Made by a program: the position numbers and the translations under genes. A model generated the notes under the pieces. It saw only the letters and a program-made list of their open reading frames with translations, made no database searches and was not told where the DNA came from. Shown piece by piece: positions 1-61,608 of a DNA stretch of 64,000 nucleotides. Location of the stretch: positions 359,501 through 423,500 of the forward strand of contig NBNI01000007.1 of assembly GCA_004379135.1 (NCBI GenBank), given 5' to 3'. The stretch's first letter is position 1. Each line of letters opens with the position of its first letter. Source of the stretch: Acidimicrobiales bacterium mtb01. GTDB taxonomy: Bacteria > Actinomycetota > Acidimicrobiia > Acidimicrobiales > Ilumatobacteraceae.

Positions 1-1
1 C

Positions 2-847
2 ATCCGCGACGTGACGTTCGGGCTCATTCGCATCGAAACCAGTCGCTGTCGCGTCGACACCGTTCGTTGCGACGACTTCGACGAACTGATCGAGCAGATG
101 AGCACGGGCGACGACGACGTGCGCTACTCGGTCGCCTGGGTCGATCTCCTGTCGGGCGGCGCGCGCTTCGGGCGGGGTGTGCTGTGGCGCGGAGATCACG
201 CGCGTCGCGACGATCTGCCGGTGGCCGATCGCGCCGACGCACTCGCCTACGGACCGCGTCAATTGGTGTCGGTTCCGCCGGTGGTCCCCGGACCGGGTGT
301 GGTGAACGCATTGTCGAGCGCGGTGTTCAACGAGCTCTGGTTCCGCAAGGAGCCGCGTCGCCGCGAGGGATCCATCAAATCGATTCCGGCCTACTTCCAT
401 CCGCTCGACGCGGTCGGTTCCTGGAATCGTTTGTACGGAGGCCACGGTTTCGTCCAGTACCAGTTCCTGATCCCGTTCGGTCGCGAGACCGAATTGCGTC
501 TGATCGTGGAAGCGATCGTGGCCTCGCGCCTGGCCACGCCGCTGGTCGTCCTCAAGCGGTTCGGCGTCGGCAACGACGCTCCGCTCAGTTTCCCGATGCC
601 GGGCTGGACCCTCACCGTCGACCTGCCGGCCGGTGCGGCGACTCTCGCCTCGCTGACCCACGCGCTCGACGACATCGTTCTCGACGCGGGTGGCCGTCAC
701 TATCTCGCCAAGGACGCTCTGCTCGGACCCGACGCCATTCGGGTCGGCTATCCGCGTCTGGCCGAATGGCAGGCCGTTCGCGATCGTCTCGATCCGCAAC
801 GGAACTTCCGGAGCGATCTCGCTCGTCGCCTCGGTCTCATGGAGTGA
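2..847 (+). CDS. dprE1: DprE1-like FAD-dependent oxidase, C-terminal part (5' truncated)
   Basis: The frame is open from the left edge, so the N-terminal FAD-binding domain lies outside the window and about 281 residues are visible. The retained part matches the C-terminal substrate domain of DprE1 / D-arabinono-lactone-oxidase-type flavoproteins, with a GGRHYLAKD stretch and a terminal DPQRNFRSDLARRLGL segment. In mycobacteria DprE1 oxidises decaprenyl-phospho-ribose to the 2-keto intermediate as the first half of arabinose donor synthesis, at the periplasmic face. The gene stops 2 bases before a DprE2-like SDR, its usual partner, which strongly supports the assignment. A GTG at 11 could be mistaken for a start, but homology clearly continues upstream. 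The alternative is another oxidase of the same fold. Confidence 0.75.
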   Translation: MRDVTFGLIRIETSRCRVDTVRCDDFDELIEQMSTGDDDVRYSVAWVDLLSGGARFGRGVLWRGDHARRDDLPVADRADALAYGPRQLVSVPPVVPGPGVVNALSSAVFNELWFRKEPRRREGSIKSIPAYFHPLDAVGSWNRLYGGHGFVQYQFLIPFGRETELRLIVEAIVASRLATPLVVLKRFGVGNDAPLSFPMPGWTLTVDLPAGAATLASLTHALDDIVLDAGGRHYLAKDALLGPDAIRVGYPRLAEWQAVRDRLDPQRNFRSDLARRLGLME

Positions 848-849
848 AC

Positions 850-1605
850 ATGCTGAACGCCGCCGGAGAACCGCAGAACATCGTCGTGCTGGGAGGGTCG
901 AGCGACATCGGCGTGGCCATCGCTCGGCGCCTGGCCGCGCCGTCCACGAAATCGATCGTTCTTGCCTGCCGTCGTCCCGACGAGGCTCCGGTCGATGGAC
1001 TCCGTCGCCCGGGCCTGGAGGTGCAGGCGGTGTCGTTCGACGCGGTCCGCGTCGAACATCACGCTTCGTTCGTCGATTCGCTCGTTGCGGCACACGGCGA
1101 CATCGACGTGGCGGTGGTCGCCTTCGGGCAGTTGGGGGAGCAGTCGCGCTTCGGCGACGACCCGGTGGCGGCGGCCGATCTCGTGACCGTCAATTTCGCG
1201 GGTGCGGTGTCGGTGCTGCTGGCCCTCGCGCGCGTGATGCGACGTCAGGGGCACGGACGCATCGTGGTGCTGTCGAGCGTGGCCGGTGAGCGGGTGCGTC
1301 CGGCCAACATGGTCTACGGCGCGACCAAGGCCGGACTCGATGGTTTCTCGCTCGCTCTCGGTGACTCGCTCGTGACGTCGGGGGTCGGTGTTCTCGTGGT
1401 TCGCCCCGGATTCGTGCGCAGTGCGATGACCCAGGGAATGGAAGCGGCGCCGTTCGCCACCACTCCCGACGCCGTGGCCGACGCGACGGTGAAGGCTCTT
1501 CGCGCCGGTCGACGAATCGTGTGGGCGCCCGGAATCCTGCGTTACGTCTTCATGGTGCTGAGGCACCTGCCCGCGCCGTTATGGCGGCGGCTTCCGTTGG
1601 GTTGA
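850..1605 (+). CDS. dprE2: DprE2-like short-chain dehydrogenase (decaprenyl-phospho-keto-ribose reductase)
   Basis: This is a 251-residue classical SDR. The nucleotide-binding glycine motif GGSSDIG is at residues 15-21, the catalytic Ser near 142-143, and the YGATK motif has Tyr156 and Lys160. The hydrophobic C-terminal end (LRYVFMVLRHLPAPLWRRLPLG) is typical of DprE2 proteins, which act on a polyprenyl substrate. The ATG is 2 bases past the dprE1 stop, so the pair is translationally coupled. Expected role: NADH reduction of the DprE1 product to decaprenyl-phospho-arabinose, the arabinofuranose donor. The last 56 bases overlap the end of the convergent gene on the minus strand. A generic SDR is the alternative, but context favours DprE2. 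Confidence 0.75.
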   Translation: MLNAAGEPQNIVVLGGSSDIGVAIARRLAAPSTKSIVLACRRPDEAPVDGLRRPGLEVQAVSFDAVRVEHHASFVDSLVAAHGDIDVAVVAFGQLGEQSRFGDDPVAAADLVTVNFAGAVSVLLALARVMRRQGHGRIVVLSSVAGERVRPANMVYGATKAGLDGFSLALGDSLVTSGVGVLVVRPGFVRSAMTQGMEAAPFATTPDAVADATVKALRAGRRIVWAPGILRYVFMVLRHLPAPLWRRLPLG

Positions 1606-4600
1606 AACCTTCGCCCGGCGGTGCCGGACGGCCGTTGCACGTGGGCGTGCACGTTCCGTCGGGTCGGGGCGGAACCGGAACAAACACCTCGACCGCGTAG
1701 TCGACGCGCGGTTGGTACGGAGGGTCGTACGGTCCGATGTCGTCGCCGGTCTCGCACCGTTCGTACAGCCGGATGACATCGGCCTGATACGAGCCGCGCA
1801 AGCAGAACGACGATTCCACCACCTGGTTCGGTTCGTCCGAGCCGAACACGATCGAATCGTTGGGTTCGATCCAGCCACTCCAGAAGCGAGTGAGGATGAG
1901 CCAGTCGGCGCTCGCAACATCGGCGCTCAGTCGCGATCCCTCGGCGTTGGCCAGGCCGGGGTCCATCTCGATGAAGTAGGTGGCCGGATCGAGTTCGGGA
2001 AACAAGTAGTAGAAGAAGACGTCGCTGTACGCGGTCTGCCGAAGGTCGACCGGCCCGACGAAGAGACGTTCACCGGGTCGCGCACGCGCGTCGAGGTCGG
2101 CGATCACCTCGAGACTCGCCTTCCACGGCCGGGTGTCGCCGAGGTGGAAGGTGCGTCCGTTGCGCTCGACCGTGAGGGTCGAGAGATCGCCGGTTGCACC
2201 ACGCACGACCAGATCGCCGTACGTTCGCAACGTGAAGAACGGCGCCACCACGGCCAACGCGACGACGAGTGATCCGCCGGCGATCCAGGTTCGCACGGTC
2301 GGGTGGATGGTGGGTGCACGACGGCGGACGATTTCGACCACGGCGACGACGGCGAGCGGCCACGACACCATGGCGACCCAATTGAAGTGGGCCGAATCCG
2401 GACGTTGCAGCGCTTGGGGCAGGATGCCCACCCCGAAGAGTGCGGGGGCCAACAAGGCGATGCGGCGCGACGAATCGAGTCGGCGCGCCACGATCACGAC
2501 TCCGATGGCGACGACGGGGAGAGCGAAGAACCACAGGAACAACTGCTTCGGCGCTCCGAGGTGGGGGAGCTCCCACCACGGAGCGAACTTCTCGCCGATC
2601 ACCTGCAGGGCTCCGTCGAGACGATCCCAACTCGGCGGCCGGGGCAGTTCGCGTCCACCGCGCAGATCGAAAACGGGTTCGAGCAGCATTCCGCGAACGA
2701 CGTCGGCCGGTCCGGCCTGGACGAGGTGGACCCAGAACGACGCGAGACCGATGGCGAGGCCACCGACGACGGCTCGCCAATGGCGGCGCACCACGGGAGT
2801 GAAGCCGAGTGCCAACGCCAGCGCGAGGACCACGTCGGGGCGGAAGGTGAGAGCGAGTCCGGCGAGTATGCCGCTGATCAGCACGGGCCGTCGAGGACGT
2901 TCGACGTACGAAGCCCGCACGGCGAACACCACCGACCACAAGCCGAGCCCGACGGCACCCGACCAGGCCAGCGCCTGCAAGCCGATCGGTGTGAGCACGA
3001 ACACCACCGAAGACGCGGCGACGACGGCCGCCACCGCCCGGCCCCAGGGGCGAGCCAGGACGAACAGTGCGGAGACGACGAGGAGATGCTGGATCAGCCC
3101 GAAGGTGCGCTCGCTGGCGAGCGAGACGTCGAAGAGTCGGTACCAGAGCGAGAGCCAGTGCAGCGAGCCGGGTCCGTAGAGATGGAGGAAGTCGACGTTG
3201 GCGATGTCGCCTTTCATCACGCGCTCGGGGAAGACGAGCATGAAGCCCTCTTCCATCGTGGAGCCGGTCGCGCGATAGAGCGCCGGAAGTGCGAGGCCCA
3301 CGGCGGCCGCGACCGATCCGACGGCGATCCACGATCGAACGGCGTTGCGATGGAGAGCATCGCGCCACGACGGCGACCCGCCGCGCACGAAAGGCGTCGA
3401 TTCGACCGGTTCGTCGCGCGGAGCCCGCGTGTAGCGACGGGCCAACCACCGCGCGATCGGCACGGCGCCGGCGCCGGCCAGAACGCACAGAATCGGTTCG
3501 GCCGGTATGCGGAACCGCGTGGTGCCGTAGGCGTACGCCGCGGTGAGGGTGACGCTCACGAACTGCACGACGAGCGGCAGGAGGCGAACCTGGCGCCGCC
3601 GGAGCCAGCGAATTCCGACCAATGATGTGGCGGCCAATCCGTAGTACATGACGAGGCCGGCTCGGGCGGCATCCTTGTCGCGCCCTTCGATGGGAGCGAA
3701 GTCGGCGTTCTGCCACGGACGGAAGAGATCCCATTGGCGCAACACACGGGCCGCGAGAACCTTGGGAAGCTGCCCGGCGTTGTCGCGGGCGTAGTCGAGG
3801 CCGATCTCGCGCCAATGGAGCGACTTCTCGGCTTCGTCTCCGACGGCGTCACGGCCCTCGCGGCGGATCTGCTCCTGGCAGTCGAACAGCCAGAACCCGA
3901 GGAACTTGCCCTCGTAGGTCTCGTCGCAGTTGGCGTACACGAACAACTCGTTGCCGTTGGTGGAGAGAGGAACGAATGCCTCGAACGAACGTGCGTTGCG
4001 CATGGCCCAGGGTGCGAGCACGAGGATGCACGCGACCGCCGCCAGTGCGACGTGCTCGATGCGCCGACGCCACGTGAGATCGCGGCGCACCGCGACCCAG
4101 GGAACGATGAGCAGAACCGACAGCAGCAGACCTTCGCCGCGTGCGAGCGTGGCCAGACCGGTGACGGCACCCATGACGATCGTCCACCGCCAGGCCGGGC
4201 GATCCCACCAGCGGTACGCGGCGTACACGACGGTCATGGTGCATAGCGCCATCAGTCCTTCGGGGAACAGCACGCCGTCGACCAACCACAGATTCGGATA
4301 GATCGCGGCCAGGAGGCCGGCGATCACCGCGGCCAGCGGCGAATCGGTGACCCGACGGGCCACGAGAACCACCAGCGCGACGACACCGGTTCCGATGAGG
4401 AGCGAGACGAACTTGTGGTCGAAGTACGTGGTGCCGCCGAGCCGCGAACTGATCGACAGAACGACCGGATACAGCGGTCCGTGCAGAGCCGACGGGATCC
4501 ACCGCTGGTAGGCGATGAAGTTGAGCGGCTCGGGGAAGCCACCGCCCTCGGCGAGGATGTTCGCCGTCGAGTGGTAGAAGAGCGGATCGCCGCCGTCGGT

Positions 4601-5485
4601 GCGAGTGGGCGCGACCGTGAGGAGCGTGGCCAGTCGCACGAGGAAGCCGAGAGCGATCACCGACGACGCCGTGAGCGCGTACGACGTCCGTCGCGCGAGT
4701 GGGCCGGACACGGTGACGACCGACATGACGGCGGTGATCAACACGCCGAGTGCGGCGGCAGTGATGAGAGTCCAGAGAAGAGTGGGCAGGACCGGTCCGT
4801 CGAGACCGATCACGCGTCCGCCGTCGAGTACGACGCGTTCGACGTGCTGCCGTGCGATGAGATCGAACGCCGAGTCACCGAGCAGGACGACACCGGGTGC
4901 GATCCAGAGCAGCGAAGAAAGTCGGCGGGTCGAACCGGAGGACTCGACGCGGTCGCCCCACCAACGTCGAGCCAGCACTCCGAGACCCACGAGATGGAGG
5001 TGTCCGAGCGGCCAGGTGGCCAGCTCCCCTCCGACGTATTGGATCGCGAGGCCGATGGCCACCAGGACGAGTGGGAGGACGACACGTGGCGGGTTGCCCC
5101 ATCGGCGCACCGCGACGAGGGCGAGGACCGTCGTGAGGAAGAGGGGTCCGATTCCGAGGCCGGGCAGAGTGCCGTCGGTCGTGCGGAAGATCAGGAGGCT
5201 GGTCAGAAGATCGCGCGGAGTCGGAGCGGTTGCGGCGTGGCTCGCCACGGCGATGGCGACCACGGCCCACCAGAGCGCGATCCAGGCGAGCAGACGGCGA
5301 CGGTTCCAGCCGACGGTCGGTGCGATGGCGATCGCCGCGATCACCAGCAGCGGTTGGATCCGACCCGACCAGGTGAACGCGCCGCCGACGGCGAGTGCCC
5401 GCTCGACGAGATGGGCGATGCCGAGCCCGAGGATCAGCCACACCGCGCGGGGGAGGGCGGGATCGTCCTGTCGAGGTCCAAGCAT
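1550..5485 (-). CDS. Large integral membrane protein with two fused glycosyltransferase (GT39/ArnT-like) modules
   Basis: This is a 1311-residue polytopic protein. Residues about 1-280 are a run of hydrophobic segments. About 280-690 form a GT-C module whose first loop has the acidic motif DGGDPLFYHSTANIL, followed by PLYPV and further TM helices. A hydrophilic linker (about 690-720) leads to a second module of about 720-1085 with VDFLHLYGPGSLHW, again a first-loop signature of GT-C enzymes. The last 220 residues are a mostly extracytoplasmic domain ending in a proline-rich tail. Such enzymes use polyprenyl-phosphate sugars, so a role in envelope glycan assembly with the neighbouring genes is likely (inference). 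ATG at 5485 is preferred over TTG at 5494. The 3' end overlaps the dprE2-like gene by 56 bases. Substrate is unknown. Confidence 0.8.
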   Translation of the reverse strand: MLGPRQDDPALPRAVWLILGLGIAHLVERALAVGGAFTWSGRIQPLLVIAAIAIAPTVGWNRRRLLAWIALWWAVVAIAVASHAATAPTPRDLLTSLLIFRTTDGTLPGLGIGPLFLTTVLALVAVRRWGNPPRVVLPLVLVAIGLAIQYVGGELATWPLGHLHLVGLGVLARRWWGDRVESSGSTRRLSSLLWIAPGVVLLGDSAFDLIARQHVERVVLDGGRVIGLDGPVLPTLLWTLITAAALGVLITAVMSVVTVSGPLARRTSYALTASSVIALGFLVRLATLLTVAPTRTDGGDPLFYHSTANILAEGGGFPEPLNFIAYQRWIPSALHGPLYPVVLSISSRLGGTTYFDHKFVSLLIGTGVVALVVLVARRVTDSPLAAVIAGLLAAIYPNLWLVDGVLFPEGLMALCTMTVVYAAYRWWDRPAWRWTIVMGAVTGLATLARGEGLLLSVLLIVPWVAVRRDLTWRRRIEHVALAAVACILVLAPWAMRNARSFEAFVPLSTNGNELFVYANCDETYEGKFLGFWLFDCQEQIRREGRDAVGDEAEKSLHWREIGLDYARDNAGQLPKVLAARVLRQWDLFRPWQNADFAPIEGRDKDAARAGLVMYYGLAATSLVGIRWLRRRQVRLLPLVVQFVSVTLTAAYAYGTTRFRIPAEPILCVLAGAGAVPIARWLARRYTRAPRDEPVESTPFVRGGSPSWRDALHRNAVRSWIAVGSVAAAVGLALPALYRATGSTMEEGFMLVFPERVMKGDIANVDFLHLYGPGSLHWLSLWYRLFDVSLASERTFGLIQHLLVVSALFVLARPWGRAVAAVVAASSVVFVLTPIGLQALAWSGAVGLGLWSVVFAVRASYVERPRRPVLISGILAGLALTFRPDVVLALALALGFTPVVRRHWRAVVGGLAIGLASFWVHLVQAGPADVVRGMLLEPVFDLRGGRELPRPPSWDRLDGALQVIGEKFAPWWELPHLGAPKQLFLWFFALPVVAIGVVIVARRLDSSRRIALLAPALFGVGILPQALQRPDSAHFNWVAMVSWPLAVVAVVEIVRRRAPTIHPTVRTWIAGGSLVVALAVVAPFFTLRTYGDLVVRGATGDLSTLTVERNGRTFHLGDTRPWKASLEVIADLDARARPGERLFVGPVDLRQTAYSDVFFYYLFPELDPATYFIEMDPGLANAEGSRLSADVASADWLILTRFWSGWIEPNDSIVFGSDEPNQVVESSFCLRGSYQADVIRLYERCETGDDIGPYDPPYQPRVDYAVEVFVPVPPRPDGTCTPTCNGRPAPPGEGFNPTEAAAITARAGASAP

Positions 5486-5591
5486 CGTCGTCAAACGTCC
5501 CGAAAGGACTGACCGATACTACGACAACGACCAGGTGGTACGGCCCGCTTGGCGGTCGGGCGCGAAGGTGCGGTGGTACCGTCGCCCGTTG

Positions 5592-6182
5592 ATGCGCAAC
5601 CGGTTCGCCCGCCCCGCGATCGCGGGCATCCTCGTCGTCGCGGTGGCCGTCTGGTGGTGGTGGCCCGGTCTCGCCGACCGTTCGACCACGGTGCTCATCG
5701 TCGGGGGCGAGCGACTCGCCGAGGGTCGAGAGCCCGTCGATCGTCGGTTGCGCGAGAACGGCTTCACCACGGAATGGACACCCGTCGCGATGTCGTGGTG
5801 CGACGTTGCCGACCTGTTGACGGACGGTCTCGACGGCGGGTCCTTCCGGGCCGCGGTTCTGGCGCCATCGAGCGACGACACGTGCGTTCCGGACACCGAT
5901 CTCGTCGACGCGGTCCGCGATGCCGGCGATCTTCGACTGGCGGTCGTCGACTGGCCGGATACCTCACCCGTCGAGCGCGAGTTCGTGGTTCGACTGGGTT
6001 CTCGATCCGACGTCGAGGTGGTGGACATCGGTCGGTTGCTCGGGGATACGGGCTCGGAGGTCGACTGTCTGTGGTGGGACGACTGCCCGAACAGCGGCCG
6101 GATCGTCGCGTGGGATGCCGACGGACTCACCGAGTCGGGGAATCAGCGCGTGGCGCGGATGATCGTGGCGGCGGTCCGATGA
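5592..6182 (+). CDS. Membrane-anchored extracytoplasmic protein, possibly degenerate SGNH-hydrolase-like
   Basis: This is a 196-residue protein of unknown function. An N-terminal signal anchor (residues about 8-24, AGILVVAVAVWWWWPGL) is followed by a soluble domain that starts TVLIVGGERLAE and ends with DADGLTESGNQRVARMI. That end resembles the last block of SGNH/GDSL hydrolases (D-x-x-H-L-T-x-x-G), but the histidine is replaced by glycine, so hydrolase activity is doubtful. Cys residues at about 62, 96 and 162-167 may form disulphides outside the cell. A TACCGT hexamer at 5577-5582 sits 6 bases before a TTG at 5589, so a leaderless TTG start one codon upstream is possible. It overlaps the next gene (ATGA). 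Confidence 0.65.
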   Translation: MRNRFARPAIAGILVVAVAVWWWWPGLADRSTTVLIVGGERLAEGREPVDRRLRENGFTTEWTPVAMSWCDVADLLTDGLDGGSFRAAVLAPSSDDTCVPDTDLVDAVRDAGDLRLAVVDWPDTSPVEREFVVRLGSRSDVEVVDIGRLLGDTGSEVDCLWWDDCPNSGRIVAWDADGLTESGNQRVARMIVAAVR

Positions 6183-7978
6183 TCGCCCGGTGGAGAACCC
6201 GGGCGATGGATCATCCGTTGGTGACGCTGATCGCGATGACCATCGTCGTGATGATGCCGGCGATCGTCGCGGTGGCGTCCAATCTGTTCGTCGACTGGCA
6301 TCCCACCGGAGACATGTCGTTGGCCGAACTGATGATGCGCGGTATTCCCGAACACCCGCCGTTGGTCGGTGTGGCGGCCCGCGTCGGCCGCGACATCAAT
6401 GATCAGGGCTACAAGCCCGGACCGTCGATGGCCTACGTCTTGTATCCGGTGTACCTCGCGATGTTCCGATCGAGCATCGGGGTGATCGTGTCGACGCTCG
6501 TCGTTCACATGGCGGGCGTTCTGGCGACGCTCTTCTTCGTGCGCCGTTGGTTCGGCTGGCGGGTCACCGCGATCACCGCGCTCGTTCTGGCGGCGATCGT
6601 GCGTTCGCTCGCTCCGGGTTTCTTTCTCGAACCCTGGAACACCTGGATCCCGGTCTTCGCCTACACGCTCTTCCTCGTTCTGATCGCCGGCGTGTTGCTC
6701 GGACACCATCGCGCGCTACCGCTGGCCGTCGCCGCGGGGTATCACTGCCTGCAAACCCACATCAGTTACGTTCCCTTGGTCGCGGGTGCGCTCGTTCCCT
6801 TGGTGGCCTGGCTCATCTGGACGACGCGGCGCTCCGGAGAATGGCGTCGACCCATCGCTTGGTCGGCCGCGGTGACCTTCGTGATGTGGTTGCCGCCGGT
6901 GATCGAGCAATTGCGACCGGGGCCGGGCAACCTGCGCCGTGTGTGGGAGCACTTCACGAACCCGCCCGACGAGACGGTGGGCGTCCGAGCGGCTTTTCGC
7001 GCCCTGGCTGGCGAGTTCAATCTGGCCGGGCCCTTCGTGACCGGACCGGGCCGCGATCCGACCGACGATCCGCGATGGTGGGGATTCGCCGCGTTCATCG
7101 TCGTGGTGCTCGCCGGACTGGCGGCGTGGCGTCGCCATCACGATCGCGACCTCGGTCGGCTGTATGTCGTTCTCGGCTGGTCCACGCTCATCGGCTTCTA
7201 CGCGACGTCCCGAGTCTTCGGAACCTTCTACGACTACGTGATCCGCTGGTCGTGGTTACTGGCGGCGTTCTGGATGGTCGCTTCCGTGTGGTCGATCTCG
7301 TCGGACGTCGACGTGAGGCGACGAGTCGCGAGAGCGAGCGCGGGCCTGATTCCGGCGATCGGCGGTGCGGCAGTTCTCGGACTGGCGATTACCGGCTCGG
7401 TGGCTTCGGCCGGGGCCGATCTGCCGTATCGAAGCGATTCGCGACTGGTGGCGAACCTGGGCGAACAACTCGAGCCGTCCCTCGATTCGGATGCGGTGTA
7501 CCTGTTGCGGTGGCACGATCCGGCATCGCTGGGCGGAACCGGGTTCGGTTTCGTTCTCGAGATGGAGAAGCGGGGCGACACGTTGAAGGTCGACCCGTGG
7601 GCCAAGGCGACCGTGCGTCCGTATCGATCGATGTCCGACGAGCGCGATGCCGATGCGGTGCTGTGGTTCGTCGTCGGGCCGCAGAACATCGAGCGCTTCT
7701 CGCAGCGTGACGACGCCGAGAAACTCGCCGAGTTCGATCCCCGTTCGGCGGCCGAAGTCGTCGAGTCGGACGAATTGCGGGATCGCATCGAGAAACGGAT
7801 CGAAGAGCTGGGTCATCCCGACTGGATCACGTTGCTCGATTCGCAGTACGGACACACCCAGGTGGTGTACAACGTCGATTCGCCGGTCGACCTCGACGCG
7901 CTCGTGAACCGCTACAACGAGATCCGCCTGCCCGGAGCGGTGTTCCGGGTGCCGGTCGGAGCGCCGCTCTACCCGTGA
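6179..7978 (+). CDS. Polytopic membrane protein, putative GT-C glycosyltransferase
   Basis: This is a 599-residue protein with about 10-12 predicted membrane helices over residues 10-420, then a C-terminal soluble domain of about 180 residues. The first extracytoplasmic loop carries FVDWHPTGDMSLAELMMRG, with an acidic pair placed as in GT39/GT83 enzymes, but overall similarity is not clear enough to name a family member. The ATG overlaps the upstream stop (ATGA) and the end overlaps the next start (GTGA), so it lies in a tightly coupled four-gene unit with the anchored unknown, a GT4 and a GT2. The C-terminal domain mentions no recognisable catalytic motif. Role in surface glycan synthesis is inferred from context only. 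Confidence 0.75.
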   Translation: MIARWRTRAMDHPLVTLIAMTIVVMMPAIVAVASNLFVDWHPTGDMSLAELMMRGIPEHPPLVGVAARVGRDINDQGYKPGPSMAYVLYPVYLAMFRSSIGVIVSTLVVHMAGVLATLFFVRRWFGWRVTAITALVLAAIVRSLAPGFFLEPWNTWIPVFAYTLFLVLIAGVLLGHHRALPLAVAAGYHCLQTHISYVPLVAGALVPLVAWLIWTTRRSGEWRRPIAWSAAVTFVMWLPPVIEQLRPGPGNLRRVWEHFTNPPDETVGVRAAFRALAGEFNLAGPFVTGPGRDPTDDPRWWGFAAFIVVVLAGLAAWRRHHDRDLGRLYVVLGWSTLIGFYATSRVFGTFYDYVIRWSWLLAAFWMVASVWSISSDVDVRRRVARASAGLIPAIGGAAVLGLAITGSVASAGADLPYRSDSRLVANLGEQLEPSLDSDAVYLLRWHDPASLGGTGFGFVLEMEKRGDTLKVDPWAKATVRPYRSMSDERDADAVLWFVVGPQNIERFSQRDDAEKLAEFDPRSAAEVVESDELRDRIEKRIEELGHPDWITLLDSQYGHTQVVYNVDSPVDLDALVNRYNEIRLPGAVFRVPVGAPLYP

Positions 7979-9120
7979 GCGATCTGCAGTCGATGGTCGA
8001 CGACATGGTCGCGCGCGGAGTGCGGCGCGTGCACGTGCTGGCCTGGCGCGATCTCGACGACCGCGAAGCGGGCGGCTCGGAAGTCCATGCCGACGAATTC
8101 ATGAAGCGGTGGGCCTCGGCCGGCCTCGACGTCCTTCATCGGACGTCCCACGCCGAGGGGCTCGCCTCCACCGCGCGGCGCAACGGGTACGACGTCGTGC
8201 GACGCGGTGGACGAATGACGGTCTTTCCGCGGACCGCGGTGTCGGAGGTCGTCGGGCGCATGGGTCACTACGACGCGTTGGTCGAGATCTGGAACGGGGT
8301 GCCGTGGCTCTCGCCGGTCTGGTGCCGCAAGCCGCGGATCCTGATCCTCCATCACATCCACGGTCCGATGTGGAACCAGGTGTTCCCGGGCCCCATCGCG
8401 GCGATCGGCCGCGCGTTGGAGACCAAGTGGGCGCCACCGGTGTATCGGCGAACACCGACCGTCACCACATCCGACGACACGCGCGACGAACTCGTCGAAC
8501 TCGGTTGGCGCCCCGAACTGGTCGCGACCGGGCCGGTGGGCGTCGACGACTTCTTCCGCAGCGATCCAGTGGTCGCCAAGACGAACCACCCGTCCATTCT
8601 CGCGGTCGGACGCCAGGCGCCGGTGAAGCGTTTCGACCGTCTCTTCGAACAAGTGTCGATCGCGCGTCGGTCCGTTCCCGACCTTCGACTGACGCTCATC
8701 GGCGATGGGCCGGAGCGAGCACGACTCGAGCGATGGGTCGACGATCAGGACGCGCGATCGTGGATCGATTTCGCGGGAAGGGTGAGCCGCGACGAGTTGC
8801 GCGATCACTACCGACGCTCGTGGGTCGTGGCCAGTGCGTCGCTCGCGGAGGGCTGGGGTCTGGCTCTCACCGAGGCGGCGGGTTGCGGCACGCCGGCGGT
8901 CGCGACCGACATCAGCGGGCATCGGTGTTCGGTGCTCGACGGAGAGACCGGGCTGCTCGCGCCGATCGACGAACTCCACCGTTCGCTCGTCGCCGCCCTG
9001 ACCGATTCCGAACGACGTTCGCAACTGTCGAGGGCGGCCGAGGCTCGGGCTCGCCGACTCACCTGGGACGCGCTCGCCGAAGGAGTGCTGTCACCTCTTC
9101 ACGCCCAAGTCGTTCGGTAG
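7975..9120 (+). CDS. Glycosyltransferase family 4 (GT-B fold)
   Basis: This is a 381-residue cytosolic glycosyltransferase. The N-terminal half has the AGGSEVHADEFMKRW acceptor-domain motif common in GT4 enzymes. The C-terminal half has the Rossmann domain with ILAVGRQAPVKRFDRL, LTLIGDGPER and the donor-binding E-x7-E region SLAEGWGLALTEAAGCGTPAV. The GTG start overlaps the preceding stop by 4 bases (GTGA). It probably transfers a nucleotide-activated sugar to a lipid-linked or glycan acceptor for the surrounding envelope pathway. The sugar cannot be read from sequence. Family call is firm. Confidence 0.88.
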   Translation: MSDLQSMVDDMVARGVRRVHVLAWRDLDDREAGGSEVHADEFMKRWASAGLDVLHRTSHAEGLASTARRNGYDVVRRGGRMTVFPRTAVSEVVGRMGHYDALVEIWNGVPWLSPVWCRKPRILILHHIHGPMWNQVFPGPIAAIGRALETKWAPPVYRRTPTVTTSDDTRDELVELGWRPELVATGPVGVDDFFRSDPVVAKTNHPSILAVGRQAPVKRFDRLFEQVSIARRSVPDLRLTLIGDGPERARLERWVDDQDARSWIDFAGRVSRDELRDHYRRSWVVASASLAEGWGLALTEAAGCGTPAVATDISGHRCSVLDGETGLLAPIDELHRSLVAALTDSERRSQLSRAAEARARRLTWDALAEGVLSPLHAQVVR

Positions 9121-9131
9121 GGTGGTCGATC

Positions 9132-9878
9132 GTGTCGACTGCCGTGGTGCTCCCCACGTACAACGAGAGCGAGAACATCGAACGCATGCTTCGAAGCCTG
9201 CGCCGCGTCGTTCCCGACGCCACGATCATGGTGATCGACGACAACTCTCCCGACGGAACCGGACGGATCGCCGAGTCGGTGGCGACCGAATTGGGGGGTG
9301 TGCGGGTGGTGCACCGAGCGGGCAAGAACGGGCTCGGCAGCGCGTATCGCCACGGGTTCGGGCTGGCCATCGACGAGGCATTCGACGCCGTGGTGTCGAT
9401 GGACTGCGACTTCTCGCACGATCCCGACGTGATCCCGATCATGCTGAGATCGCTCGACGAGGGGGCCGACGCCGTGGTGGGTTCGCGCTACGTGCGTGGA
9501 GGCGGCACCAAGGACTGGCCACTGCACCGTCGATTGCTGTCGCGTTGGGGCAACTTGTACACCGGCTTCGTGCTCGGCGTGAAGGTGCGCGATTGCACCT
9601 CGGGCTTCCGGGCCTACCGCGGCTCGGCACTGGCGGCGATCGACCCACGCACCACGCGAGCCGAGGGATACGCCTTCCTCACCGAACTGGTGGTTCGGCT
9701 GTCGCGACGCGGGTCGCGGATCGTCGAAGTGCCGATTCTCTTCGTCGACCGGCAATACGGCACGTCGAAGATGTCGGGTCGGATCATCGCCGAATCCATG
9801 ATCCTGGTGACCCGATGGGGAATCGGCGATCGTTGGCGCCGATTGCGCGGGACGGGTCGAACTAGCGCGAATTCTTGA
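9132..9878 (+). CDS. Polyprenol-phosphate mannose synthase-like glycosyltransferase (GT2)
   Basis: This is a 248-residue GT2 protein resembling Ppm1/DPM1. It has [13 protein letters not shown] at the N-terminus, the nucleotide-binding [11 protein letters not shown], the metal-binding [18 protein letters not shown], the SGFRAY motif and the C-terminal QYGTSKMSG characteristic of dolichol/polyprenol-phosphate mannose synthases. It would make polyprenyl-phospho-mannose from GDP-mannose at the inner membrane face, supplying membrane mannosyltransferases such as the PIG-V-like protein at 14.6-15.8 kb. No C-terminal membrane segment is present. The GTG is 11 bases after the upstream stop. The 3' end overlaps the convergent GT2 gene by 17 bases. 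Confidence 0.85.
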
Positions 9879-10605
9879 TGGATTCGACGCGACCGAGCAC
9901 GTTCGAGCCGATCTCGGAGTAGCGCACGATGCAGTACACGGCTCGAACACCGTCGCGCCAGCCGATCTTCTTGCCTTCGGCGTAGGTGCGGCCGGAGTAG
10001 GAGATGCCGACCTCGTAGATGCGGTACTGCCCGCGTGCGAGCTTGGCCGTGATCTCGGGTTCGAAGCCGAAGCGATCTTCTTCGATGGTGATCGACTGGA
10101 TGACCGTGCGTCGGAAGCACTTGTAGCAGGTCTCCATGTCGGTGAGGTTGAGGTCGGTGAACATGTTCGACATCAAAGTGAGGAACTTGTTCCCCATGCT
10201 GTGCCAGAAGTAGAGGACGCGGTGCGGACGGCCCGACAGGAATCGTGATCCGAACACCACGTCGGCGCGATCGTCGAGCAGTGGTTCGAGCAGAACTCCG
10301 TACTCGCCCGGGTCGTACTCGAGGTCGGCATCCTGGACGATCACGAAGTCGGAAGTGGCCCGCGTGAAACCGGTGCGCAGCGCGGCGCCCTTGCCCTGAT
10401 TGCGCTCGTGGAGAACGACGGTCACGCGCGAGTCGGTGATTCCGGCGAGGATGTCACGCGAGCGATCGGAGGATCCGTCGTCGACCACGACGATCTCGGC
10501 CACCCAGGGTGACGCCAGGACCTGGTCGACCAAGGTCTTGATGGTGGCCTCTTCGTTGTAGCAGGGGACCACGACCGAGAGGCAGGGGAACGGTTGCGCG
10601 CTCAC
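9862..10605 (-). CDS. Glycosyltransferase family 2, polyprenyl-phosphate-glycose synthase type
   Basis: This is a 247-residue GT2 protein. Visible motifs are [24 protein letters not shown], the metal-binding [16 protein letters not shown], and a Cys-rich [10 protein letters not shown]. It belongs to the DPM/DPG-synthase-like branch that transfers hexose from a nucleotide sugar to polyprenyl phosphate. There is no membrane segment, so it probably binds the membrane peripherally. Its GTG start overlaps the stop of the upstream AftD-like gene (GTGA), so it is the last gene of a minus-strand operon of PIG-V-like, AftD-like and GT2 genes. Sugar specificity is not evident. Confidence 0.85.
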
Positions 10606-13600
10606 GACCCACGTACTCTACGGCTTGGCGCGTCGACGTTCGACTGTCCCCACCATCCCATGGTCACGAGAACGAGACCGACAAGGGCGGGTCGATGTGC
10701 TCGCCGGAAGACCGAGGGCCAGCCGAAGCCCGGATCGGCGCCGGTTCGGATCTGTTGGGCGATCACGAACAGACCGGCCAGCACGATGAGCGCGACGCCG
10801 ATTCGCCGGGCCCAGACGCCGAAACTCCGGCGAACCAGGATCAGCGGAATCAGTGCCCACGACGGGCCGATCACGATCGCCGTGATCGCGGTGGCGGCCA
10901 ACGCCGACCGCCGAGGGTTCGATTCCCCCGCGACGACGATGTTCGCGGACGTCGCTTCAGCCGGGTCGTTGCGGCGACGCAACGACCAGACGAGGCACGC
11001 GAAGCAGGCCAGCAACGTCAGTAGGGAGATGATGAGGCCGATCCAGAGCGTGCGTTGCGGCGACCAGGAGGCGTCGACGGTTCTCGCTCCATCGGAGGGT
11101 TCGAGCCACCACGTGGTGCGACCGCCGCCCGATGCGATGGGTGCACCGATGGACGAACCATCGATCGAGGCCGACCAGCCGGTGTTCCAGCCGTCGCGCG
11201 TCTCGAGCCAGCACCCGTCGGGACAGGGCGGAATGGTGAAAGTGCGCGAGGCGCGACTGGCCTCGGTCTCGACGTTCGTCGTCGAAGCTGTCGGTGTCGT
11301 CGGAGTCGTCGCGACGACTGGGAAACGAGCCTCGGTCGATCGCAGCACGAGTCGGTCGATGTGCCAACCGGTTTCGTCGCCGGGACGAACCTCGAGTCGA
11401 TGATCGCCGGTCGCGAGAGGAATCGACTCGTCACAGGGCCGAGCCGCGAGCGGTCGACCGGCGAGGACGTCGCCCAGGGATCCTTCCAGGCCGAGTGAGA
11501 CCGTCCGACCATCGAGTCGGATCAAGTCGTCGCGGCAGTCGACGGTGAACGACATGTCGGGATCGATCGTGGCCGACCCGTCGATCTCGACGATGCCGAC
11601 CGGTGGGGTCATGACGTTTCCGGTTCGAGCATCGCGACGAGGTGCGATCGCGGTTGCCTTCGGCGTGAGGGTGATGCTCGTCGCGCCGGCCGGAATCACG
11701 ATCCGGAACTCTCCACCAGTGAGATCCTCGGCCGAGACCTCGGCCCCGTCGACTCGGGCGCGCAACGCGGCACCGTCGCTCGCGGTGAGTCGAACCATCA
11801 GATCGCCGTCCACGACCGGAACGGTGAGCGAGGGATCCGGGTCGTCCACCGACGGATACCAGGCCGTGCGCGAATCGCCGTCGATCGCGTGCCAGGGGAG
11901 GACCGCGCGCGACAGCACGCTGCTCGCCTCGAGATCGGGGAGCAACTCCGACGCAACGGCGTCGACGCGCACCGTGGCCTCGATCGAGATCGATTCGTCG
12001 CGGGGAGAATCGAACGCTCGTCGGATGGCCGTTTCCGGATCGCGGCGCCACGGGTCGACGGAATCGGCGGTGAGGCGCGTGAAGATCCAACTGGTGGGAG
12101 CGGTGTACCGCGGCAACGAGGTCGTACGAGGAACCCGGACGAATTCGGCGCGACTCCGGTCGGGAGGAACCATCTCGGCCCAGCCGACCGCGTCGTCGCC
12201 ATCGGTCGTCACGTCTTCGATGCGCACGTCGACACGACGTCCGGGCGGGTCGAGTTCGATCCGTGGCGTTCCGCTCAGGTCGTGGGAGAGCCATCGTCCG
12301 CCATCCACCCGCACCGACACGCGGGTGATGCGCCGATCGGATTCGGCCGGCACGAGTTCGAGCGCATCGAGCGGATCGCGAGCATCGAGTGTGATGATCT
12401 GACCGCGCGGGTCGCGTCGTTCACCCACCGTCCACGCGGTGCCGCGGTCGCCGTCGATCGCCATGGACGGACGGACCTCGGGTCGATACGTCAGATCCCA
12501 GCCGTAGGCGGTGGCACGGGCGGTGAGATCGGATGGCTCGATGATCGACTGGTCGTCGCTCGTCTGGTCGGGGAAGACCGGCAGTCGTTGGTCGAAGACG
12601 TCGATCGACGAGTTCACACCGGTGAGCGGTTCGGTCGCTCCCCACACCTCCTGCGAACTGCGCCAGTGGTGCGCCCGACGACGGTTCGAGTCGGTGACCA
12701 CGACGTCGGGGGCCGATGCGAGTGCTCGTTCGAGTGATCGGTCGTCGAGGGCGGCCACGGCGAGCACCGGCTCGTCCACGAGCGCCGCGATGTCGACGAG
12801 ACCCGTTCCGTCGGCCAGCACGACAGTCGGGTTCTCGATCGTGCGGTCGGCCGCGTTCGCGCCGTCCACCGCGTAGAGGCTGATCTCGGGCAGCGGTGTC
12901 GGAGGGAAGAGCGCGTCCTCGGCCGACCAGAACGGACTGGTGTTCGTCGCGGGTGATCCGAAGTCGGCGAGGTGCGAGAGTCCGGCTGCTCGGTCGAGTG
13001 CGAACGATGCGTTGCGCGCCGGCGAGACCGTTCCGAACCGCTCGTACTGATGCGAGTTCACGACCATCACCGTGTCGGCGCCGAGCAAACGGGCGACTGG
13101 TGCGATCGCGGCCGGATCGATGTCACCGTTCTGGAACGCGTCGTCGAGCGCGTAGAGAAGATCCATGTGCGGGGCACTGCCGAGGGGCAGCCAGTCGCGG
13201 CTGAGGAATCGCTTGTTGGTGAGACCGGGAAGGATCGGGTCGACGGTGTAGCCCCAGCGGTACGCGGCCGACTCGATCCCCGGAACCAACAGCACCGACC
13301 CGGTGTATCCGGCGTCGAGGCGCGCATCGAGATAGTCGGCGGCTTCCTGCCAGGCCGTCGGAACGTCGTTCGGCCGCTCCATCACCGGGTCGACGAGTCG
13401 GCCGCCCACGAGGGCGGGAAGATTGACGACGGCGATCACGAGGGCGAACGCCGGCGCCACGAGGTGTGGTCGAGAGCGACGACGCGCCAGCCGTTCGATC
13501 GAGAGTCCGGCCCCGATCGCGAGGGCGAGGACCACGAGCGGCACGGCTCGGGTGGATGAACGCAGCGCCAGACTGAGCGCACTGGTGGGGTTGTCGGCGG

Positions 13601-14624
13601 CGAGGCTCCACAGCGGCGATGGGTCGTCGAACGGATGCGCGCCGATCGCGAGCACGGCGCCGACCAGGAGCATGGCGACGAGGGGGCGACGCACTTCGGT
13701 TCGAAGCCAGCGCAGACCGCGCAATCCGAGGGCGACGACGGCGAACCCGGCGACGATCACCGCCAGGTTGCCCATGTACGGCGTGGCGGCAGAAGTGAGC
13801 GCGACCACGTGAGTGCGGTCGTAGAAGAGCCAGTAACCGAGTCCGCGCAGCACCTCGATCGAGCTGGATGTGGCCGCGGTGGAAACGAGCGTCTCGCTGT
13901 ACGAGAGAACCGCGGCACCGTGAGCGCCCTGCACGCGCAGTCCGGCCATCCACCACGCACTCGCGCCGAGCCCGACGGCCCCCAGGATCGTCAGCGTGGA
14001 CGCGATTCGCCGCCACGACTGGCCGCGTGACGCCGCCACGAACCAGATGATCGGAGCCGGTGCGATCATCAGAAGAGCGGTGGCGTTCAGCCCGCCCGTC
14101 GACGCGATCAGCACGCCGAACAAGCCGATGAAGCGAGGGTCGCGCCGCTCGGCGATGCGGATGGTGACTCCGATCAGCCAACCGAGGAGTGCCCACGGGA
14201 GCAGGAGTGCCGACGTTCGGGAGATGTAGGGGAGCACGTAGGGAGAGAGTTGGTACAGGATCGCGGCGCACAGACCGGCGGTGGCTGACAGGCGCAGGAT
14301 TCGCGCCAGCCACAGAACCCCCAGCCCGGCGAGCAGCAGAAGCGAACCGGTCCAGAGGCGATGGGCGATCCAGTCGGGAACGCCGAGCCGATCGAACAAC
14401 GCGTAGAAAGGGCCGGACGGCCAGAGGTAGCCCACGTTCTGATGCGGAACCCACCCGCCGAGTTGGCGACCGTCCCACGACCAGATCGAGTCGGAGATCA
14501 AGCGGCCGGGATCGAGGTAGAGATACAACTTGGTGTCGCCGGGTACGCGACCCGGCGCGCTCGCCAGCAACGGGATGTAGGCGAGGGCGGCCAGAAGAGA
14601 GATCCGGCGCACTCGTTCGCTCAA
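10602..14624 (-). CDS. aftD: AftD-like alpha-(1->3)-arabinofuranosyltransferase
   Basis: This is a 1340-residue membrane enzyme. The N-terminus after the first helix reads [20 protein letters not shown] then [16 protein letters not shown], the signature of the mycobacterial AftD/DUF3367 family, followed by about ten membrane helices to residue about 430. A large extracytoplasmic part contains two discoidin/CBM-like repeats centred on [10 protein letters not shown] and [10 protein letters not shown]. The C-terminus has about four more helices ([17 protein letters not shown] and after). AftD adds branching alpha-1,3-arabinofuranose from decaprenyl-phospho-arabinose, the product of the DprE pair found 9 kb upstream. 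TTG at 14624 is chosen because it overlaps the upstream stop (TTGA). GTG at 14612 is the alternative start. Confidence 0.82.
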
Positions 14625-15844
14625 GGGATCGCTCCGTACACGCCGTACAACGCAGTCAGCGCCACCAGCCCGGCGCCCGACGTGGCCATCACGTACGGCC
14701 ACCAGTGTTTGCGCTTGTCGCTCTCGAGCCAGAGGGCGGCGACGATCACGAGCGGAAACGCGGTGAACAAGAAACGCGGACGTGCGGTCACGGTCGCGGG
14801 AAGGAGCATGAGCGCCACGATCACGGCGCTGTATGCGGCGGCAATGGGCGGCAGACCTCGTTTCCAGGCGACCCAGACGAGGAGGAAGGTGCACAGGAAC
14901 GACACCGCCGTGATGAGGTCGGTCGGCGACGTGAGCGGTTTCGTGAAGGCCTCGAGCGTGTTGCGAATGGCGGTGAGGCCGAACGACGCTCCCTCCTTCC
15001 AGGCTTCGCCCTGCACGCGGAACCAGACGCGGGACTCGCCGGTGTGGCGATCGATCCACCACTGGAAGAAGAGGAAGCCGGTGGGAGCGAGCAGCGGCGC
15101 GATCAGCGACGACCACTGGCGTTTGGTTCTGATCGCGATGACCGAAGCGATCGCACAGGCCGCGACCACCGCGATGCCATTGGGTCTGGTCGTGGTCGCC
15201 AACGCGGCCAAGACTCCGGCCAGTAGCCATCGCTCGCGGGTGAGTGCCAACAGGCAAGCGGCGGCCAGGACGAGCAGGAGAGCCTCGCTGTACGCGAACG
15301 ACAGGACGAAACTGCCGGGGAAGATGGCGGTGAGCACCATGGCCATGCGCGCGTGCTCGGCGCCGAACCAGGCCCGGGTGAGCAGACCGACCAGGACGAT
15401 GAACACCGCACCGAGAACGAGATTGAGGAACAGAGCGGCGAAGGTGTCGCCGCCGGGCAGGACGCGGTCGACGGCGCGCACCAGACCGGGGTAGGCCGGG
15501 AAGAAGGCGACCCGGGCTTCGGGGTCGTCGTAGGTGATGCCGTCGGGGACGAACGACGGGTATCCGCGGCGGACGATCCGCATGTACCAGATGCCATCCC
15601 ACGACGTGAGCACGTCGAGGATCATCGACCCGGCCGAACGGGGCAGCACCGCTTCGCGGGCGTGCGGATCGGGTTTGGCGAAGTAGCCCCAGATCAGTCG
15701 CTCGCGGATCTTGTTGTCGTCGGCTCGGAGTTCGGCCCCGACGATGGCGGCACCGGCGATCACGCAGATGCGCGAGACGACGTAGGCGATGGCGGCGTGC
15801 CGGAGGGCCAGTCGCCAGACGAGAGAGTCGCGCGAATCGTTCAT
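14621..15844 (-). CDS. PIG-V-like membrane mannosyltransferase
   Basis: This is a 407-residue polytopic membrane protein. The first luminal/periplasmic loop has LTSWDGIWYMRIVRRGYPS, and further on VAFFPAYPGLVRAVDRVLP, the two hallmark motifs of the PIG-V/GPI mannosyltransferase II family. About eight hydrophobic helices follow. These enzymes take mannose from polyprenyl-phospho-mannose, which the nearby Ppm-like GT2 could make. The ATG at 15844 starts a three-gene minus-strand operon with the AftD-like and GT2 genes, linked by TTGA and GTGA overlaps. The acceptor is unknown. A lipoglycan or glycoprotein is plausible. Confidence 0.85.
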   Translation of the reverse strand: MNDSRDSLVWRLALRHAAIAYVVSRICVIAGAAIVGAELRADDNKIRERLIWGYFAKPDPHAREAVLPRSAGSMILDVLTSWDGIWYMRIVRRGYPSFVPDGITYDDPEARVAFFPAYPGLVRAVDRVLPGGDTFAALFLNLVLGAVFIVLVGLLTRAWFGAEHARMAMVLTAIFPGSFVLSFAYSEALLLVLAAACLLALTRERWLLAGVLAALATTTRPNGIAVVAACAIASVIAIRTKRQWSSLIAPLLAPTGFLFFQWWIDRHTGESRVWFRVQGEAWKEGASFGLTAIRNTLEAFTKPLTSPTDLITAVSFLCTFLLVWVAWKRGLPPIAAAYSAVIVALMLLPATVTARPRFLFTAFPLVIVAALWLESDKRKHWWPYVMATSGAGLVALTALYGVYGAIP

Positions 15845-58747: not shown

Positions 58748-58795
58748 TCGGCGGTCGTTCGGTCCTCGCTCGTCCACATCCGAGGCTTCGAGAAG

Positions 58796-58801
58796 TATGG
58801 T
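58796..58801 (+). promoter_or_regulatory. -10 hexamer (TATGGT) for leaderless pafA
   Basis: TATGGT ends 6 bases before the GTG at 58808, so pafA can be transcribed apart from prcBA. Confidence 0.5.
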
Positions 58802-58807
58802 GCCGGT

Positions 58808-60166: not shown

Positions 60167-60190
60167 CGCGGGCGGGCCGGGCCGGCCCGA

Positions 60191-60196
60191 TACGGT
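60191..60196 (+). promoter_or_regulatory. -10 hexamer (TACGGT) for leaderless lepB
   Basis: TACGGT ends 6 bases before the GTG at 60203. Confidence 0.5.
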
Positions 60197-60202
60197 GAGA
60201 CC

Positions 60203-60838: not shown

Positions 60839-60841
60839 CAA

Positions 60842-61558: not shown

Positions 61559-61596
61559 GTGGCCATGTTGGCAGACCCGCCCCACCGACCCCCTCG

Positions 61597-61602
61597 TAGA
61601 CT
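61597..61602 (+). promoter_or_regulatory. -10 hexamer (TAGACT) for the tatB-tatC transcript
   Basis: TAGACT ends 6 bases before the GTG at 61609. Confidence 0.5.
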
Positions 61603-61608
61603 CGCGGT

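What the first reader, a model, noticed from the sequence alone, without database searches (positions are those of the whole stretch)
850..15844. Arabinan-type envelope pathway outside the mycobacterial lineage
A DprE1/DprE2-like pair, an AftD-like arabinofuranosyltransferase with two discoidin-like repeats, Ppm-like and PIG-V-like mannosylation genes and several glycosyltransferases cluster in 15 kb. This set is the core of donor formation and branching for arabinogalactan/lipoarabinomannan in Mycobacteriales. If the organism is an Acidimicrobiia member, it may make an unrecognised arabinofuranose-containing polymer.
Basis: partly seen in the sequence, partly recalled or inferred. Interest (0 to 1): 0.6.

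Follow-up and report, generated by a model that had tools for sequence, protein, structure and literature searches.

The report
Arabinose-donor glycosylation cluster in Ilumatobacteraceae
A bacterium of the family Ilumatobacteraceae, far from the tuberculosis lineage, carries what looks like the full gene set for making the activated D-arabinofuranose of mycobacterial cell walls, next to genes for attaching sugars outside the cell, but lacks key genes for mycobacterial arabinogalactan, so it probably decorates some other, unidentified surface glycan with this sugar.

Summary
Just upstream of the window lie a HAD phosphatase and a DPPR synthase (UbiA), followed by DprE1 and DprE2; UbiA, DprE1 and DprE2 each pass a curated equivalog cut-off, so the lipid donor of D-arabinofuranose can probably be made. 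AftD-like, PIG-V-like, two GT2, one GT4 and further GT-C enzymes follow. The organism is in Ilumatobacteraceae (Acidimicrobiia). The arabinogalactan analogy is only partly right: the genome (97.7% complete) has no match to EmbABC, AftA, GT87, GtrA or UDP-galactopyranose mutase. Nor is the donor module rare outside mycobacteria: strong DprE1 occurs in 79 of 198 class genomes, 76 of them with UbiA; in 396 phylum genomes DprE1 passes its cut-off in 55 and Emb in 15. DprE1 lies within 27 kb of AftD in 10 of the 12 family genomes with both; no such case was seen outside, though most of those assemblies are fragmented. Best reading: an Emb-independent D-arabinofuranosylation locus acting on a non-galactan envelope glycan, with the AftD-like enzyme and an unclassified GT-C beside DprE2 as candidate transferases. 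Acceptor and product are unknown. New variant of a known kind, testable in cultured Ilumatobacter.

The parts
1..847 (+). DprE1 (FAD oxidase of polyprenyl-P-ribose), C-terminal 281 codons; starts upstream of the window at L004:17981 (contig position about 358980)
   Evidence: NF053785 535.7 bits over cut-off 500; PDB 4aut/21gq 347-355 bits; tree
850..1605 (+). DprE2 (NAD(P)H reductase of the 2-keto intermediate)
   Evidence: NF053786 298.8 bits over cut-off 250; YxxxK (YGATK) present
1550..5494 (-). Two GT-C modules in one 1314-aa frame: N half PMT_2, C half (window 1553-3424) an unclassified GT-C conserved beside DprE2
   Evidence: Pfam; AlphaFold model pLDDT 66 with GT-C enzymes as best matches; orthologues of the C half near DprE2
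6179..7978 (+). GT-C membrane glycosyltransferase, no Pfam family over cut-off
   Evidence: AlphaFold model pLDDT 69; ArnT, ALG12, AftA, Pmt and OST neighbours
7975..9120 (+). GT4 glycosyltransferase
   Evidence: PF00534 100.8 bits; orthologues in all 10 family regions, one cut by a contig end
9117..9866 (+). GT2 glycosyltransferase
   Evidence: PF00535 116 bits
9862..10605 (-). GT2, polyprenyl-phosphate-sugar synthase-like (Ppm/ArnC/AglJ type)
   Evidence: PF00535 122.6 bits; AglJ model 117 bits, below its cut-off 325; PDB relatives
10602..14651 (-). AftD-like GT-C arabinofuranosyltransferase with discoidin-like modules (start codon approximate)
   Evidence: PF11847 291 bits; 6w98 E 1.8e-38; conserved D40, K42, Q72, W234, W235, E254, R270
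14621..15844 (-). PIG-V/PMT_2-like GT-C mannosyltransferase
   Evidence: PMT_2 35.5 bits over cut-off, PIG-V below cut-off; orthologues in 8 of 10 family regions

Best explanation
The locus makes polyprenyl-phosphoryl-beta-D-arabinofuranose and uses it, outside the membrane, to add D-arabinofuranose to an envelope glycan that is not arabinogalactan. [quoted passage not shown] (2) the overlapping HAD phosphatase removes the 5'-phosphate; (3) DprE1 oxidises C2 and DprE2 reduces it, giving the arabino form; (4) an unidentified flippase turns the donor outward; (5) the AftD-like enzyme and probably the unclassified GT-C beside DprE2 transfer D-Araf. The GT2/GT4 and PIG-V/PMT-like enzymes probably build or decorate the acceptor, likely mannose-containing. 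Supported by family and motif evidence: the enzymes of steps 1 and 3 and the AftD-like catalytic core. Inferred: HAD as the phosphatase, the flippase, transferase specificity, acceptor.
For: DPPR synthase 331 bits over cut-off 207, E 3.8e-59 to solved 8j8j, NDxxDxxxD kept. DprE1 and DprE2 over equivalog cut-offs. The HAD frame overlaps UbiA by 4 bases and keeps FDVDKTLT; HAD is the phosphatase in the Citrobacter pentofuranose systems (PMC11127046, passages and part 1 of 2 of the Discussion). Of 198 class genomes strong DprE1 and UbiA co-occur in 76 (3 and 2 alone), DprE1 and AftD in 63 (18 AftD-only, 16 DprE1-only) (related genomes are not independent). In the family, 12 of 14 sampled genomes have both DprE1 and AftD and 2 have neither; the two lie within 27 kb in 10 of 12, in the other 2 on different contigs. 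AftD core residues kept, including in 6w98. No Emb, AftA, GT87, GtrA or GLF match in the genome.
Against: 18 of 81 AftD-bearing genomes have no strong DprE1 (16 of these no UbiA over cut-off either), so a PF11847 enzyme need not use this donor; 16 of 79 DprE1 genomes lack AftD. The AftD-like protein scores 294 bits where three class matches score 600-665, so it is in a divergent group. UbiA is below the cut-offs of two sibling DPPR-synthase models (254 of 474, 171 of 234). Outside the family DprE1 and AftD were never seen close together (0 of 51, but 46 of these have them on different contigs). No flippase was recognised in the cluster and GtrA is absent. No D-arabinanase (DUF4185) match in the genome. 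The only Acidimicrobiia sugar analysis I saw (a relative of Iamiaceae) lists rhamnose, ribose, mannose and galactose, no arabinose (PMC12263773, passages); whether that strain has DprE1 was not tested. No biochemical evidence.
Confidence: 0.65

Rival explanations
1. The D-Araf donor modifies a protein or pilus glycan, as in Pseudomonas aeruginosa pilin glycosylation, rather than a polysaccharide.
For: D-Araf outside mycobacteria is established on P. aeruginosa pili (cited in PMC11127046 and PMC10115798, passages). PMT_2-type GT-C enzymes in the cluster are protein-O-mannosyltransferase-like, and Pmt structures head the VIA lists of both GT-C models.
Against: AftD and its discoidin-like modules belong to a glycan-acting family. 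None of the cluster genes identified is a pilin. Many GT-C families are tied in the fold searches.
Confidence: 0.15
2. The AftD-like and other GT-C enzymes use polyprenyl-P-mannose or other hexose donors made by the two GT2 enzymes; UbiA-DprE1-DprE2 serves another, distant acceptor and is only a neighbour.
For: 18 of 81 AftD genomes lack strong DprE1; outside the family no close linkage was seen (0 of 51; 5 on one contig 83-646 kb apart, 46 on different contigs); UbiA-DprE1-DprE2 is on the opposite strand from AftD.
Against: Within the family, presence and absence match in 14 of 14 sampled genomes, with linkage in 10 of 12; AftD catalytic core conserved.
Confidence: 0.15
3. It makes a lipoarabinomannan-like lipoglycan: mannan backbone from the Ppm-like GT2 and PIG-V/PMT-like enzymes, capped or branched with D-Araf. 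(A specific form of the best explanation.)
For: Ppm-like GT2, AftD-like and PIG-V-like genes lie in one minus-strand run; the GT2 is 73-77% identical to orthologues in 3 other family regions.
Against: No EmbC and no GT87 match in the genome. PIG-V match is below cut-off. PimA, MptA and MptB were not searched.
Confidence: 0.3

Closest known systems
Mycobacterial/corynebacterial DPA pathway (Rv3806c UbiA, DprE1, DprE2)
   Same: Same three enzymes, each above a curated equivalog cut-off; UbiA motif and DprE1/DprE2 family signatures kept
   Different: HAD phosphatase beside UbiA, where M. tuberculosis uses Rv3807c, stated to be unrelated to HAD-family enzymes (PMC11127046); no GtrA-type (Rv3789-like) match; Thr where solved mycobacterial DprE1 has the Cys of 'GWNICVD'
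AftD (6w98)
   Same: GT-C core with D, K, Q, WW, E, R kept; discoidin-like modules on the C side
   Different: 291-294 bits to PF11847 against 600-665 for three class matches; His71 where 6w98 and L006-L008 have Asn; linked to DprE1 here
Three-component pentofuranose addition systems (Citrobacter; PMC11127046)
   Same: PPPRS of UbiA type plus HAD phosphatase, DprE1/E2 homologues in candidate Araf systems, extracytoplasmic GT-C
   Different: HAD and UbiA are separate genes here; no MATE flippase among the cluster genes identified; AftD-like and unclassified GT-C rather than a shown GT136; an actinobacterium
Pseudomonas aeruginosa pilin D-Araf glycosylation
   Same: D-Araf donor enzymes outside mycobacteria
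   Different: No pilin gene among the cluster genes identified; several envelope glycosyltransferases instead

Membership tests
DPA donor pathway | DPPR synthase (UbiA) of the equivalog with catalytic NDxxDxxxD | tested here: met
   NF008978 331.2 bits, cut-off 207 (below cut-off for sibling models NF008976 and NF008977); NDLLDVEAD; 8j8j E 3.8e-59
DPA donor pathway | DprE1, not another aldonolactone/xylitol-type oxidase | tested here: met
   535.7 bits, cut-off 500; up to 355 bits to DprE1, 65 to xylitol oxidase
DPA donor pathway | DprE2 reductase | tested here: met
   298.8 bits, cut-off 250
DPA donor pathway | Rv3807c-type phosphatase | not tested
   A HAD-IB gene stands in its place; Rv3807c-type was not searched
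DPA donor pathway | Product polyprenyl-P-D-Araf | not testable with these tools
   Needs biochemistry
Mycobacterial arabinogalactan | Galactofuranose supply (GLF) | tested here: not met
   PF03275: no match in the genome; rings in 4 of 14 controls including C. glutamicum; genome 97.66% complete
Mycobacterial arabinogalactan | EmbABC arabinosyltransferases | tested here: not met
   PF04602: none in own; 3 of 198 class genomes
Mycobacterial arabinogalactan | AftA priming transferase | tested here: not met
   PF12250: none in own; 6 of 198 class genomes
Mycobacterial arabinogalactan | AftC-type GT87 | tested here: not met
   PF09594: none in own
Mycobacterial arabinogalactan | Rv3789-type GtrA exporter | tested here: not met
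   PF04138: none in own
Mycobacterial arabinogalactan | AftB | not tested
   Not searched genome-wide
AftD | GT-C_AftD domain over curated cut-off | tested here: met
   291 bits, cut-off 26
AftD | Conserved catalytic-core residues (Asp and Glu roles recalled from GT-C enzymes) | tested here: met
   D40 in 34 of 36 rows (Glu in L006 and L098); K42, Q72, E254, R270 in 36 of 36 including 6w98
AftD | Carbohydrate-binding (F5/8-type) modules | tested here: inconclusive
   One stretch below cut-offs; two DGDxxTAW motifs
AftD | alpha-1,3-arabinofuranosyl transfer | not testable with these tools
   No assay
Three-component pentofuranose system (PMC11127046) | PPPRS with HAD-type phosphatase | tested here: met
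   Overlapping HAD (TIGR01490 142.7 bits, cut-off 98.3) and UbiA genes; phosphatase function inferred
Three-component pentofuranose system (PMC11127046) | MATE-family flippase | tested here: inconclusive
   None among the cluster genes identified; not searched genome-wide
Three-component pentofuranose system (PMC11127046) | GT136 transferase | not tested
   No GT136 model used
Lipoarabinomannan | PI-mannoside anchor and mannan backbone enzymes (PimA, MptA/B) | not tested

The most novel reading that the evidence does not exclude
Acidimicrobiia (and other Actinomycetota that carry UbiA-DprE1-DprE2 without Emb) make an Emb-independent D-arabinofuranan or D-Araf-decorated glycan built by divergent AftD-like enzymes and a new GT-C family beside DprE2; mycobacterial arabinogalactan would be a late elaboration, with Emb, AftA and galactofuran added to an older, phylum-wide D-Araf system.
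Probability: 0.3. Interest if true: 0.7.

Novelty: new variant of a known kind. Interest (0 to 1): 0.5.

Why it matters
D-arabinofuranose is usually treated as a hallmark of the mycobacterial envelope and its donor enzymes as tuberculosis drug targets. Here the donor module is apparently complete, clustered with extracytoplasmic transferases, and uncoupled from Emb, AftA and galactofuranose supply. In a phylum sample (drawn with extra weight on the window's own relatives) DprE1 is over cut-off in 55 of 396 genomes: 26 of the own class, 14 of family f70, 15 elsewhere. Emb is over cut-off in 15, all 14 of f70 and one other. So 41 of these 55 DprE1 carriers show no Emb and must use the sugar in some other way, if they make it. 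The cluster is present in a cultured type strain (Ilumatobacter coccineum YM16-304, now coccineus by recall), which makes the question testable.

Tried and rejected
Arabinogalactan or a mycobacterial-type wall: rejected for lack of GLF, Emb, AftA, GT87 and GtrA matches. Recent transfer from mycobacteria: not indicated by the DprE1 tree (quick method, SH-aLRT only, midpoint root, 45 of 109 inner branches open, 40 starred; 15 of 129 extracted rows were left out as copies of other loci or from short contigs). Aldonolactone or xylitol-type oxidase: rejected. D-arabinanase as a sign of own turnover: none in own; 11 of 198 class genomes over cut-off, 20 at E<=0.001.

Structure prediction of the two unclassified GT-C modules gave moderate models (pLDDT 66 and 69); fold searches show the GT-C fold but do not single out arabinosyltransferases (the weaker Foldseek rows are transporters and other membrane proteins). 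For the DprE2-neighbour module the top VIA row is Pmt4 Z 15.1, rmsd 4.1, 309 aligned; AftB Z 12.1, 4.7, 364; AftA Z 10.2, 5.2, 386. For the second GT-C: Pmt1-Pmt2 Z 18.4, 4.3, 363; AftA Z 17.3, 5.2, 436. Profile searches of both against PDB sequences found nothing at E<=1. Literature searches for arabinose in Acidimicrobiia walls gave nothing direct (listings; passages seen); searches on DprE1 or AftD outside mycobacteria (listings) led to PMC11127046, PMC10115798 and PMC9993113 (passages). The AftD structure paper is not held.
Full report
WHAT IS THERE. The window is contig C1:359501-423500 of a 2.56-Mb genome in 7 contigs, 97.66% complete. DprE1 ends at 847 and begins upstream of the window. 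In order on the plus strand: prephenate dehydrogenase, AroA, HAD-IB phosphatase, UbiA, DprE1, DprE2. UbiA scores 331 bits to the decaprenyl-phosphate phosphoribosyltransferase equivalog NF008978 (cut-off 207; it is below the cut-offs of sibling models NF008976 and NF008977), DprE1 536 (cut-off 500) and DprE2 299 (cut-off 250). UbiA keeps NDLLDVEAD; the HAD keeps FDVDKTLT; DprE2 keeps YGATK. The solved DPPR synthase 8j8j matches at 3.8e-59, and nine solved DprE1 sequences at 326-355 bits, whereas xylitol oxidase scores 65.

Then follow: minus-strand GT-C double module 1550-5494; plus-strand GT-C 6179-7978, GT4 7975-9120, GT2 9117-9866; minus-strand GT2 9862-10605, AftD-like 10602-~14651 and PIG-V/PMT_2-like 14621-15844. 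The open frame listed for AftD (1666 aa) overstates it: its first ~316 residues overlap the PIG-V-like gene in another frame, and the family match begins after them.

WHOSE IT IS. Four contigs of genomes in the window's GTDB family (f1) have the same lengths as contigs of the named MAGs L055, L062, L064 and L065 and share a 300-base test stretch with them; two of these are titled Ilumatobacteraceae and one acIV. G027, also in f1, has a single contig of 4,830,181 bp, the published chromosome length of Ilumatobacter coccineum YM16-304 (PMC3910706, passages). Its habitat is unknown to me.

WHAT IS MISSING. In the genome there is no match to EmbABC (PF04602), AftA (PF12250), GT87 (PF09594), GtrA (PF04138), UDP-galactopyranose mutase (PF03275) or DUF4185 D-arabinanase (PF13810). 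Corynebacterium glutamicum rings in the first five searches as a control; no control genome rings in the last. Mycobacterial arabinogalactan is therefore excluded as far as a 97.7% complete genome allows. AftB, PimA, MptA/B and flippases other than GtrA were not searched genome-wide.

HOW WIDESPREAD. In 198 genomes of the class: AftD domain 81; DprE1 over cut-off 74 and strong (a match of 300 bits or more) 79 (counted); UbiA over cut-off 78; AftA 6; Emb 3. Strong DprE1 and UbiA go together in 76 genomes (3 and 2 alone). AftD and DprE1 go together in 63, with 18 AftD-only and 16 DprE1-only. The Fisher values treat related genomes as independent, so they overstate significance, and some absences may come from incomplete MAGs. 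In 396 genomes of the phylum, a sample with extra weight on the window's relatives, DprE1 is over cut-off in 55: 26 of the own class, 14 of family f70, 15 elsewhere. Emb is over cut-off in 15, the same 14 of f70 plus one class genome. Named loci with UbiA, DprE1 and DprE2 close together include Planotetraspora, Streptosporangium, Blastococcus and Microbispora. So a donor module outside Mycobacteriales is common, not unique to this window.

WHAT IS SPECIAL. DprE1 and AftD lie on one contig within 27 kb in 10 of the 12 f1 genomes that have both; in the other 2 they are on different contigs. Outside the family, of 51 genomes with both, 5 have them on one contig, 83-646 kb apart, and 46 on different contigs; many of these assemblies are fragmented, so close linkage outside the family was not seen but is not excluded. 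In f1, 12 of 14 sampled genomes have both and 2 have neither. I fetched nine further f1 regions, chosen because they hold DprE1 and AftD, and looked for the other genes there (10 regions with own): GT4 10 of 10; DprE2 10 of 10; HAD and UbiA 9 of 10 each (G118's contig lacks them); plus-strand GT2 at 43% identity or more 9 of 10; PIG-V-like 8 of 10; C half of the GT-C double module 6 of 10; second GT-C over its length 5 of 10; minus-strand GT2 at over 70% identity 4 of 10. Absence from a fetched stretch is not absence from the genome. The C half is the next match after DprE2 in all six regions that have it, with up to about 2 kb between, and lies within about 2.6 kb of DprE2 in eight named loci and, cut by the contig end, a ninth. 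By position it is the best candidate for a dedicated transferase besides AftD.

RELATIONSHIPS. In the DprE1 tree of 114 rows (quick IQ-TREE) the ten family rows fall in a set of 27 with SH-aLRT 99, apart from f70, which groups with Pseudonocardiaceae. The AftD-like protein is 30-39% identical to AftD of other f1 regions. Aligned in 36 rows (own, 20 class loci, 9 f1 stretches, 5 named loci of which one is Spongiactinospora, and the solved 6w98), it keeps Asp40 (34 of 36 rows), Lys42, Gln72, Trp234, Trp235, Glu254 and Arg270 (36 of 36). That Asp and Glu are catalytic is recalled from GT-C enzymology, not from a call. Three class loci (L006-L008, 600-665 bits) share Asn71 with 6w98 and L098; own and the other rows have His71.

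FOLD OF THE UNCLASSIFIED MODULES. Many GT-C families are tied, so no donor can be read from the fold.

MECHANISM. PRPP plus polyprenyl phosphate gives polyprenyl-P-ribose-5-P (UbiA); HAD dephosphorylates; DprE1/DprE2 epimerise at C2; a flippase not found here exposes the donor; GT-C enzymes transfer D-Araf. This combines the mycobacterial route with the HAD phosphatase known from Citrobacter systems; the same paper found DprE1/E2 homologues in the candidate systems of Araf-containing glycans (PMC11127046). The acceptor is unknown; a mannose-containing glycan is suggested by the Ppm-like and PIG-V/PMT-like genes.

KNOWN OR NEW. Donor enzymes and AftD are known families; D-Araf outside mycobacteria is known in Pseudomonas aeruginosa pili. 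In the held open-access library, searches joining Acidimicrobi* with arabinofuranos* (10 papers), with arabinogalactan (7 papers), and with cell-wall sugars/arabinose/Ilumatobacter (2 papers holding three of four terms) listed nothing whose title or abstract start concerns D-Araf in this class; subscription papers are not held. I therefore file it as a new variant of a known kind.

Noticed in passing
window 58049-61992 (+): Proteasome subunit, PafA-type Pup ligase (546 bits), signal peptidase S26-like and TatA-like genes stand together: a Pup-proteasome locus, another trait shared with mycobacteria.
   Followed up: partly
window 1550-5494 (-): Two GT-C modules share one frame here (and in L058 and L056) but are separate genes in G019.
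   Followed up: partly
DprE1, window 1-847: The residue aligned with the Cys of mycobacterial 'GWNICVD' is Thr in own DprE1; of 15 class relatives aligned 13 have Ala, one Thr and one Cys. From recall, that Cys is the benzothiazinone target, so such inhibitors would not be expected to bind covalently.
   Followed up: no
L058, L122 and L111: Records titled 'Bifidobacterium breve' (L058, L122) and 'Bacillus sp. AZ43' (L111, unverified) carry DprE1 that sits in the window's clade, a Microthrix clade and a Geodermatophilaceae clade: probably mislabelled or mixed records.
   Followed up: no
G145:C1: This same-order genome has an AftD match of 659 bits, a strong DUF4185 match (242 bits) and DprE1 split over two overlapping frames: a possible second, more mycobacteria-like arabinan system; Emb and AftA were not matched there.
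   Followed up: no
class genomes of family f29 (six handles): AftA-like proteins were found only in this family among the 198 sampled class genomes.
   Followed up: no
class family f4 (genera g14, g15 and g22): All twelve sampled genomes (1.5-2.2 Mb) have DprE1 and UbiA, but seven lack AftD, so another transferase must use the donor there.
   Followed up: no
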